A stretch of 64,000 nucleotides of DNA, taken from Trichothermofontia sichuanensis B231. GTDB lineage: Bacteria; Cyanobacteriota; Cyanobacteriia; B231. Of this stretch, positions 15,668 through 48,539 are shown in pieces. The position numbers were made by a program, and so were the translations under genes. Every line of letters begins with the position of its first letter. The stretch's first letter is position 1. The stretch covers positions 3,057,741 through 3,121,740 of the forward strand of contig NZ_CP110848.1 of NCBI RefSeq assembly GCF_026240635.1, given 5' to 3'. The notes beneath the pieces are model-generated. The model was given only the letters and a program-made list of their open reading frames with translations, ran no database searches and had not been told where the DNA came from.

Positions 15668-16150
15668 GCTCGTAGTTACAGTTGACTGAGTGCGTTTACC
15701 GGAAGCCTAACCAAGCGTGTCCCTTCCTCTTTCAACTATATCCATTGCCCTGTCAGAGACCCTTGATTCATATCACAAGTTGCTGATATTGACCAAGAGG
15801 GTTAACGCCTCCTCCCGTAACCTGGTGCGGTGATCGCGATCGCAGCCAAACCCTAGCCCGATCGTGTATAATGACAAGAAGGACAACGTTAAGACTGGAC
15901 TAGTACGCTGTCAAGCTTGAATTAGGTAGAGTGGGTCGCACCAGCTCGATGCCAACCAACAATCCGGCATTTTAGGCAGGACAGTCCACTTGCCTCAGGC
16001 ACCCCAGCCGCCCCCGGTGCAATCGCCTCTTCCAACTGCTAGAACCTCCACTCTCCCCAAAAAAATCCCCCAGTCTTAGGACTGAGGGGGTCGGCTACGA
16101 GTGATACGAGTCTTGGTGTGTAAGGTTATTGGTAGTGTGGTACCAGCAGA
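15668..16150. other. Long intergenic region with a TATAAT box and a leftward terminator
   Basis: No coding gene is apparent. A TATAAT hexamer lies at 15867-15872 without a clear -35 partner. A hairpin with a 7-U tail on the minus strand lies at 16059-16090 and is listed separately. The stretch contains AGGCA-n-TGCCT and similar small hairpins near 15975-16000, so a small RNA is possible. Confidence 0.35.
16059..16090 (-). terminator. Rho-independent terminator reading leftward
   Basis: On the minus strand the sequence reads CCCCCTCAGTC-CTAA-GACTGGGGGA followed by seven T residues (16065 to 16059). The T-run is only on this strand. The nearest upstream minus-strand gene is the HAD gene ending at 16726, on the far side of a plus-strand gene. 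The terminator therefore either ends a short leftward RNA or limits antisense read-through. Confidence 0.7.
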
Positions 16151-16190
16151 TGACAATCGGATGACAATGATTTGACAGGAGCGTGACAAT
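16151..16190. promoter_or_regulatory. Four TGACA direct repeats with exact 11-bp period
   Basis: TGACAAT, TGACAAT, TGACAGG and TGACAAT start at 16151, 16162, 16173 and 16184. That is one repeat per helical turn. The complement reads TGTCA with 11-bp spacing, which is the architecture of PhoB/OmpR-type operators. The array lies 125 bp before the secreted NPxL-repeat gene, and a TAACGT (-10-like) is at 16208. The binding protein is not known from the sequence. Confidence 0.65.
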
Positions 16191-16314
16191 TTTGTCGACG
16201 GTTCTGCTAACGTGGCAATTTTGTTGATTCGATCGCGATCGACAAACTCACAATCCGGCTATCTCCCTTACCCGCAAACCCAACGTTACCCAACTGATCA
16301 CTGGCAACTGTCCT

Positions 16315-16713
16315 ATGAAAAATTCCCCTATCTCCCGTTGGTTTATCCCGGCTCTGGCTGGGACGCTGGGTTCCCTCTCAACGCTTTGCCCAGGCCAGCC
16401 CGTGGTGGCTGCCCCCGCCCCCACTTTCCAACTCGCCCAAGCGGAATCCCTGGGGATTGATCTGCGCCAGTTACAGCAAACGCTCCAGCAAAACCCCCAA
16501 CTTCAGGAACAGGCCATCCAGTTCCTCCAGCAAAAACCGGAACTGGTTATGGAGATGATGCAGACTCTGATCAGCACGAATCCTGGTTTGATCGATCAGC
16601 TCCAACAGGACCCGGCGTTGGTCAAGCAGGTTGCCCAACAATACCCGCTGTTAATTCAGATGTTGCAGCAGAACCCGGCGCTTGTGGAGCAAATGCGTCA
16701 ACTTCTGGAATAG
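16315..16713 (+). CDS. Secreted small protein with STI1-like NPxL repeats
   Basis: The 132-residue product has a signal peptide (basic start, hydrophobic core IPALAGTLGSLSTL, possible cleavage near VVAAPA). A Gln-rich helical domain follows, made of repeated units around QQNPQLQEQA, STNPGLIDQL, QQDPALVKQV and QQNPALVEQM. The NPxL pattern resembles STI1/DP2-type helical repeats known from chaperone adaptors and ubiquilins. Those are normally cytosolic, so a periplasmic version is unusual. The ATG at 16315 is chosen because the signal peptide starts there. Upstream lies an array of four 11-bp-spaced TGACA repeats. Function unknown. Confidence 0.72.
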   Translation: MKNSPISRWFIPALAGTLGSLSTLCPGQPVVAAPAPTFQLAQAESLGIDLRQLQQTLQQNPQLQEQAIQFLQQKPELVMEMMQTLISTNPGLIDQLQQDPALVKQVAQQYPLLIQMLQQNPALVEQMRQLLE

Positions 16714-16725
16714 CTGGCTTTACCG

Positions 16726-17469
16726 CTAGGGCACTATCACGTTAATCGCGTGCCAGTGGGCCACCACGCAGTCAGGCTGTTCCAAAAGCGCCGGAGGAGA
16801 CCAGCCCCAGGTAACCCCAATAGTCCCCGCCGCACCCGCCGCCCGAGCCATGACCGCATCTCCCTCAGCATCCCCAATCACCAGGGTTACCGCAGGGGCA
16901 ATGTCCAGAGCCTGACACACGGATAACAACGGGGCCGGATCGGGCTTAGCCGGCAAGTTATCCGCACCTTGGGCGATCGCAAACAAGGAACCCAGATCAT
17001 AACACTCCACGAAATCATCAACATTGGCCGTTGTGTCTGCCGATACCAGGGCAAGCTGAATGCCAGCATTGGTCAGCGATCGCAACCAATCGACCATACC
17101 GGGGAAGGGAGGGGTATGCTCGGCTTTACGAGGCAGAGCCTGATCCGCTGCTTGAAAAGCCGCTCGCGTTATCTCACGGGCAGCATACCAACTATGCCCC
17201 CTCTCGGCGACATAGGCCGCCGCCGCAATCTCATTCTCGCGCCGCGTCCCAACAGCCAGTAACCCCGCCGCATCCACACGGGATCCCTGTAACCCAAAGG
17301 CCATCAATAGGGGATCCTGCACCCCCGGAACTTGGGCCTCAAGGAGGCGCGATCGCGTGTGGCCCAACGTCCGCAGAAACTGGGCTACATCCGCGATCGT
17401 CCCATCCTTATCAAGCGCGATCGCCTGAATATCCGCAAAAACAACACCGTTACACCGAACCGAGGCCAC
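16726..17469 (-). CDS. HAD-family hydrolase (phosphoglycolate phosphatase-like)
   Basis: This 247-residue HAD superfamily protein should use an Asp-phosphate intermediate to dephosphorylate a small metabolite. Motif I is ALDKDGTIAD, with the nucleophile Asp and the acid Asp separated by Lys. Motif II is around LALVSADTT, and motif IV is VIGDAEGDAVMARAAGA. The helical cap between motifs I and II places it in subfamily I, as in Gph phosphatases. The substrate cannot be inferred. It begins 12 bp after the stop of rpsA and is probably cotranscribed with it. Confidence 0.85.
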   Translation of the reverse strand: MASVRCNGVVFADIQAIALDKDGTIADVAQFLRTLGHTRSRLLEAQVPGVQDPLLMAFGLQGSRVDAAGLLAVGTRRENEIAAAAYVAERGHSWYAAREITRAAFQAADQALPRKAEHTPPFPGMVDWLRSLTNAGIQLALVSADTTANVDDFVECYDLGSLFAIAQGADNLPAKPDPAPLLSVCQALDIAPAVTLVIGDAEGDAVMARAAGAAGTIGVTWGWSPPALLEQPDCVVAHWHAINVIVP

Positions 17470-48506: not shown

Positions 48507-48539
48507 CTGTAATAATACTGTAATAATACTGTAATAATA
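48507..48539. repeat. 11-bp tandem repeat, three copies
   Basis: CTGTAATAATA is repeated three times without interruption (48507-48517, 48518-48528, 48529-48539) in the spacer between petE and the REC-like gene. Confidence 0.85.

What the first reader, a model, noticed from the sequence alone, without database searches (positions are those of the whole stretch)
16151..16190. Four TGACA half-sites spaced exactly 11 bp
Repeats start at 16151, 16162, 16173 and 16184. One repeat per helical turn is the hallmark of OmpR/PhoB-class operators, and the complement (TGTCA every 11 bp) resembles an E. coli-type Pho box more than the cyanobacterial SphR box I know. The regulated gene would be the secreted NPxL protein to the right or a short RNA to the left.
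Basis: partly seen in the sequence, partly recalled or inferred. Interest (0 to 1): 0.6.

Follow-up and report, generated by a model that had tools for sequence, protein, structure and literature searches.

The report
PhoB-style operator before a candidate sRNA

Summary
The array is real: TGACA at 16151, 16162, 16173 and 16184, unique in the 4,436,989-bp genome (size identical to Trichothermofontia sichuanensis B231). Half-sites are perfect and spacers unrelated, so it is not a decayed tandem repeat. Read leftward (TGTCA) it scores as an E. coli-type PhoB box: its three dimers rank 3rd-5th of 127,966 window positions. It is not this genome's Pho box: its pstS-type promoters carry TTAA-type SphR boxes, which the array lacks. 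Nor is it a RpaB HLR1 site. Polarity favours a leftward promoter: across 40 spacer-diverse TGTCA arrays a -10-like hexamer peaks 11 nt downstream in the TGTCA direction. The window has CACACT there on the minus strand, then one of only three strong intrinsic terminators in 64 kb. Together these predict a noncoding RNA of about 68 nt (16127-16060, minus). Homologues of the rightward NPxL gene in six genomes lack the array. A related TGTCA array with a TATA-type -10 at the same spacing is conserved upstream of an HtrA-like protease in one cyanobacterial family, so such operators exist in cyanobacteria outside the SphR code. The regulator is unknown; no expression data were available.

The parts
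16151..16188 (-). Operator: four TGTCA half-sites (TGACA on +) at 16151-16155, 16162-16166, 16173-16177, 16184-16188, period exactly 11 bp, dissimilar spacers
   Evidence: E. coli PhoB matrix ranks its three dimers 3rd-5th of 127,966 positions
16134..16139 (-). Candidate -10 hexamer CACACT, 11 nt downstream of the last TGTCA, the spacing seen in other TGTCA arrays; weak
   Evidence: 2.7% of window hexamers score as well
16123..16128 (-). Alternative -10 hexamer TAACCT, 22 nt downstream of the last TGTCA (one further helical turn)
   Evidence: 0.8% of window hexamers score as well
16060..16127 (-). Predicted noncoding RNA of about 68 nt (start inferred from the -10, end from the terminator); no start codon seen in it, no Rfam match
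   Evidence: inference; no transcript data
16059..16088 (-). Intrinsic terminator: 9-bp stem, 4-nt loop, then A plus seven U
   Evidence: one of three of this strength in 64 kb on both strands
16182..16227 (+). Direct repeat CGTGACAATTTTGTCGA / CGTGGCAATTTTGTTGA (88%), 29 bp apart, overlapping the fourth half-site; meaning unknown
16315..16713 (+). Secreted NPxL-repeat protein, 132 aa: rival target, 126 bp right of the array

Best explanation
The array is a four-half-site operator for a response regulator of the OmpR/PhoB family whose half-site is TGTCA at 11-bp spacing, as for E. coli PhoB. Two dimers would bind head to tail on one DNA face, reading leftward, and activate a promoter whose -10 lies one turn beyond the last half-site (CACACT 16139-16134, or TAACCT 16128-16123). 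The transcript would be a noncoding RNA of about 56-68 nt ending at the terminator at 16067-16059. Shown: the array, its PhoB-like score, the terminator, absence of a start codon, mismatch to the SphR and HLR1 codes. Inferred: binding by a response regulator, activation, leftward direction, the RNA itself. Unknown: which of the 12 OmpR-type regulators binds it and what signal it reads.
For: Array and uniqueness. PhoB matrix ranks 3-5 of 127,966. In 40 such arrays -10 likeness peaks at offset 11 in TGTCA sense: mean -2.1 against a profile mean of -5.6, sd 0.9. The window obeys this on the minus strand, not on the plus strand. One of only three strong terminators in 64 kb lies just downstream, chance about 0.2% per 100 nt per strand. 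A conserved cyanobacterial htrA promoter has the same layout, half-sites 91% and spacers 70% conserved.
Against: The -10 candidates are weak. No orthologous intergenic region exists in the searched genomes, so neither array nor RNA has a phylogenetic footprint. TGTCA pairs are not clearly enriched in the genome: 12 against 6 for the reversed control, four of the 12 being this array or a tandem repeat. None of the eleven other OmpR-type regulators nor SphR has all four PhoB base-contact residues. The terminator might end the HAD-gene transcript coming from 16726.
Confidence: 0.5

Rival explanations
1. The array is an OmpR-family operator for the rightward secreted NPxL gene (16315-16713), as activator site or repressor site.
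For: It is the nearest annotated-size gene, 126 bp away and pointing away from the array. An extended TGCTAACGT -10-like hexamer (TAACGT, offset 19) lies between. Regulators can act in either orientation.
Against: Offset-11 position on + has no -10 likeness. Homologues in G002, G026, G055, G041, G217 and G258 have no TGACA pair with fewer than 3 mismatches upstream.
Confidence: 0.2
2. It is a Pho box bound by this genome's SphR under phosphate starvation.
For: 11-bp period and E. coli PhoB likeness; SphR candidate L138 keeps three of four PhoB base-contact residues.
Against: Cyanobacterial SphR boxes are CTTAACCT-type with a required TTAA core (PMC1906773, PMC11126600). The three pstS-type promoters of this genome score 14.7, 20.9 and 6.7 on the SphR matrix, the array -4.4, rank 769.
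Confidence: 0.1
3. It is a RpaB HLR1-type light/redox element.
For: RpaB keeps three of four PhoB base-contact residues including Arg201; TTACA and TGACA differ by one base.
Against: HLR1 has a 10-bp period (KTTACAWW-N2-KTTACAWW); the array scores below zero, rank 364 or worse.
Confidence: 0.07
4. Chance or neutral sequence with no regulator.
For: Allowing any 5-mer and several periods over the genome, about 0.03 such arrays are expected; no conservation can be shown.
Against: Half-sites perfect, spacers unrelated, match to a known regulator code, -10 at the expected distance and a rare terminator beyond it.
Confidence: 0.13

Closest known systems
E. coli PhoB box (TGTCATAAAACTGTCATA type; PMC10294691)
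   Same: TGTCA half-sites, 11-bp period, tandem; -10 about one turn after the last half-site
   Different: Four half-sites; no Pho gene beside it; host uses a different Pho code; regulator not identified
Cyanobacterial SphR/PhoB Pho box (CTTAACCT-N3 repeats; PMC1906773, PMC11126600)
   Same: Direct repeats at 11 bp, three or more copies
   Different: TTAA core absent in all four half-sites; strongly negative matrix score
RpaB HLR1 element (KTTACAWW-N2-KTTACAWW; PMC13421787)
   Same: OmpR-family direct repeats in cyanobacterial promoters
   Different: 10-bp period, TTACA core; no match
RpaB-controlled sRNA PsrR1 of Synechocystis (PMC13421787)
   Same: An sRNA under an OmpR-type response regulator in a cyanobacterium
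   Different: Different regulator code; the RNA here is predicted only and has no Rfam match
TGTCA operator before the HtrA-like protease in cyanobacterial family f31 (found here)
   Same: TGTCA-type repeats at 11 bp, -10 at 11 nt, TGTCA in the direction of transcription
   Different: Three main half-sites, conserved, drives a protein gene; not at htrA in this genome

Membership tests
OmpR/PhoB-family operator | Tandem direct half-sites one helical turn apart | tested here: met
OmpR/PhoB-family operator | Bound by an OmpR-family response regulator | not testable with these tools
   12 Trans_reg_C proteins in the genome; binding not measured
E. coli-type PhoB box | Match to the PhoB ChIP-seq motif | tested here: met
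   three dimers rank 3-5 of 127,966
E. coli-type PhoB box | -10 hexamer about one turn after the last half-site, in TGTCA direction | tested here: inconclusive
   CACACT at the right place but weak
E. coli-type PhoB box | Host has a PhoB with all four base-contact residues T194, V197, R201, R219 | tested here: not met
   read from the translations; SphR candidate has W at 201, RpaB has V at 194
Cyanobacterial SphR Pho box | TTAA core in each repeat | tested here: not met
   score -4.4 against 6.7 to 20.9 for own pst promoters
RpaB HLR1 | KTTACAWW repeats with 2-nt spacer | tested here: not met
Regulator-controlled sRNA | Short noncoding transcript with an intrinsic terminator | tested here: inconclusive
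   terminator present; transcript not measured; no Rfam family

The most novel reading that the evidence does not exclude
Cyanobacteria contain a second PhoB-like regulatory code (TGTCA, 11 bp), separate from the SphR TTAA code and read by an unassigned OmpR-type regulator; it controls an envelope protease in one family and an uncharacterised sRNA in Trichothermofontia.
Probability: 0.3. Interest if true: 0.55.

Novelty: new member of a known kind. Interest (0 to 1): 0.4.

Why it matters
If right, the genome holds a response-regulator-driven small RNA that annotation does not show, under a recognition code not assigned to any cyanobacterial regulator in the papers I could read. The conserved htrA operator gives a handle for finding that regulator by DNA affinity capture, and would link it to envelope protein quality control. 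It also shows that a Pho-box-like motif in a cyanobacterium should not be read as phosphate control.

Tried and rejected
Minisatellite decay: spacers unrelated. SphR Pho box and HLR1: matrices do not match. Known RNA family: none. Conservation of the region: no DNA match in 38 other genomes of the class and no closer relative held. NPxL orthologous promoters: array absent. Genome-wide TGTCA regulon: pairs 12 against 6 control, not convincing; other 3-copy matches at up to 3 mismatches are mostly simple tandems or single chance-like sites. Class-wide 3-copy count is about equal to the reversed-pattern control because tandem repeats dominate both, so raw counts are uninformative; only spacer-diverse arrays were used. 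The G036 array between a sensor kinase and a 120-aa membrane protein is not conserved upstream of 29 homologues. A transposon end was considered for TGTCA repeats (recalled, not tested by a dedicated search): flanking genes are ordinary chromosomal genes and no transposase is adjacent. No structure prediction was run, as it would not bear on the operator.

Full report
What was checked. No other 3-copy exact array exists in the genome. The genome is 4,436,989 bp in one contig, the same size as the chromosome reported for Trichothermofontia sichuanensis B231 (PMC10172474), a hot-spring cyanobacterium. In the window it is the only 4-copy 5-mer array at a fixed period of 8-14 with dissimilar spacers, and none appeared in 60 simulations. 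Spacer identity is 17%, so the half-sites are kept while the spacers are not, the pattern of a binding array and not of slippage.

What code it matches. I built a matrix from 50 E. coli PhoB ChIP-seq sites listed in PMC10294691 and one from the cyanobacterial SphR boxes of PMC1906773. On the PhoB matrix the three overlapping dimers of the array, read on the minus strand, take ranks 3, 4 and 5 of 127,966 positions; ranks 1 and 2 are a simple TGTAATAATAC tandem at 48508. On the SphR matrix the array scores -4.4, whereas the promoters of the three pstS-type genes of this genome score 14.7, 20.9 and 6.7 (the last is weak). Synechocystis PhoB/SphR needs the TTAA core in each repeat (PMC11126600), which the array lacks. 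The RpaB HLR1 element has a 10-bp period and does not match. So it works like a PhoB box but does not belong to this genome's Pho code.

Which way it points. Most are simple tandems; 26 arrays have diverse spacers. Several of these lie, in TGTCA orientation, ahead of a PhoD phosphatase, a phosphonate-binding protein and other solute-binding proteins. Pooling these with 14 diverse 3-copy arrays from cyanobacteria, likeness to a sigma-70 -10 hexamer peaks at 11 nt after the last TGTCA in the TGTCA direction, mean -2.08 where the profile over 45 offsets averages -5.57 with sd 0.88; in the other direction the value at 11 is -3.99. The -10 matrix used consensus frequencies from my own knowledge. 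In the window the offset-11 hexamer is CACACT on the minus strand, and nothing -10-like at offset 11 on the plus strand; TAACCT lies one further turn away.

What lies to the left. A 9-bp stem, 4-nt loop and seven U form a minus-strand terminator at 16088-16059. A stricter scan finds only three such terminators on both strands of the 64 kb, giving about 0.2% chance of one within 100 nt on a given strand. Between the predicted start near 16127 and the terminator there is no start codon, and no Rfam family matches. The fold of that stretch is not exceptional beyond the terminator (z -1.7). The leftward gene, an HD-domain metalloprotein of the Npun_R2479 family, starts 484 bp away beyond the terminator. 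The economical reading is a short RNA of 56-68 nt. The caveat is that the HAD hydrolase gene on the minus strand ends at 16726 without an obvious terminator, so the hairpin could end its transcript.

What lies to the right. The 132-aa secreted NPxL protein has homologues of about 40% identity in a few genomes of the class. Their upstream regions have no TGTCA or TGACA array. They are distant and in other gene neighbourhoods, so this weakens but does not exclude the rightward reading.

Do cyanobacteria use such operators. One spacer-diverse hit led to the shared promoter region of an LptA-like gene and an HtrA/Deg-like protease in genome G294. Searching its family found the same promoter in genomes of several genera. 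Aligned, the array reads CGTCA-N6-TGTCA-N6-TGTCA followed at 11 nt by a TATA(G/T)T hexamer, in the direction of the protease gene; half-site columns are 91% conserved, spacer columns 70%. From memory, E. coli phoA has the same layout. This is a phylogenetic footprint for a TGTCA-type operator in cyanobacteria. It does not show that the window array is read by the same regulator.

Which regulator. The genome has 12 OmpR-type DNA-binding domains. RpaB, NblR, a RppA-like and a SphR-like protein are recognisable; L138, followed by a membrane-anchored kinase-like gene, is the likely SphR by my reading of its recognition helix. PhoB reads bases with T194, V197, R201 and R219 (PMC3264566). None of the 12 has all four: L138 has W at 201, RpaB V at 194, and L142, an orphan regulator close to the pst genes, has V, T, R and I. 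The regulator therefore stays open, and the signal with it.

Limits. There is no closer relative to footprint the window itself, no transcript data, and the -10 is weak. Confidence that an OmpR-type regulator uses the array is about 0.75; that its main product is the leftward RNA about 0.5.

Noticed in passing
L235-L246, L249, L250 (promoter block; e.g. L234 6024-6065): Conserved TGTCA direct-repeat array with a TATA(G/T)T -10 at 11 nt upstream of an HtrA/Deg-like protease across several genera of one cyanobacterial family; layout like an E. coli PhoB promoter.
   Followed up: partly
L233 7372-7398: In G036 an almost E. coli-consensus Pho box (TGTCATAAACCTGTCATTTTCTTGTCA) lies between a RppA-like regulator/kinase pair and a 120-aa membrane protein; not conserved upstream of homologues.
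   Followed up: yes
window 48507-48539: Three tandem TGTAATAATAC units, top PhoB-matrix hits in the window, about 175 bp upstream of a 253-aa receiver-like protein and downstream of a plastocyanin-like gene.
   Followed up: no
L128 1500-1530 (genome 3123632-3123662): A tandem of TTGTCACTCAT units just past the window end, ahead of a 116-aa minus-strand ORF; identical spacers, so probably a simple repeat.
   Followed up: partly
L150, L151, L152 upstream regions: SphR-type boxes upstream of the three pstS-type genes of this genome, e.g. TTTTTGAACCTCTTAACCTGGTCTTTACGC.
   Followed up: yes
window 16182-16227: Direct repeat CGTGACAATTTTGTCGA / CGTGGCAATTTTGTTGA, 29 bp apart, overlapping the fourth half-site; each copy is a near inverted repeat of the half-site.
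   Followed up: no
L192 and L193 around 1501-1538: Perfect or near-perfect palindrome of two TGTCA plus two TGACA half-sites (TGTCAAACGAATGTCAAA..TTTGACATTCGTTTGACA) shared by G183 and G021.
   Followed up: no
window 16315-16713; L182-L184, L186: Small secreted NPxL-repeat protein family; in four genomes the gene lies directly upstream of a dprA-like gene.
   Followed up: partly
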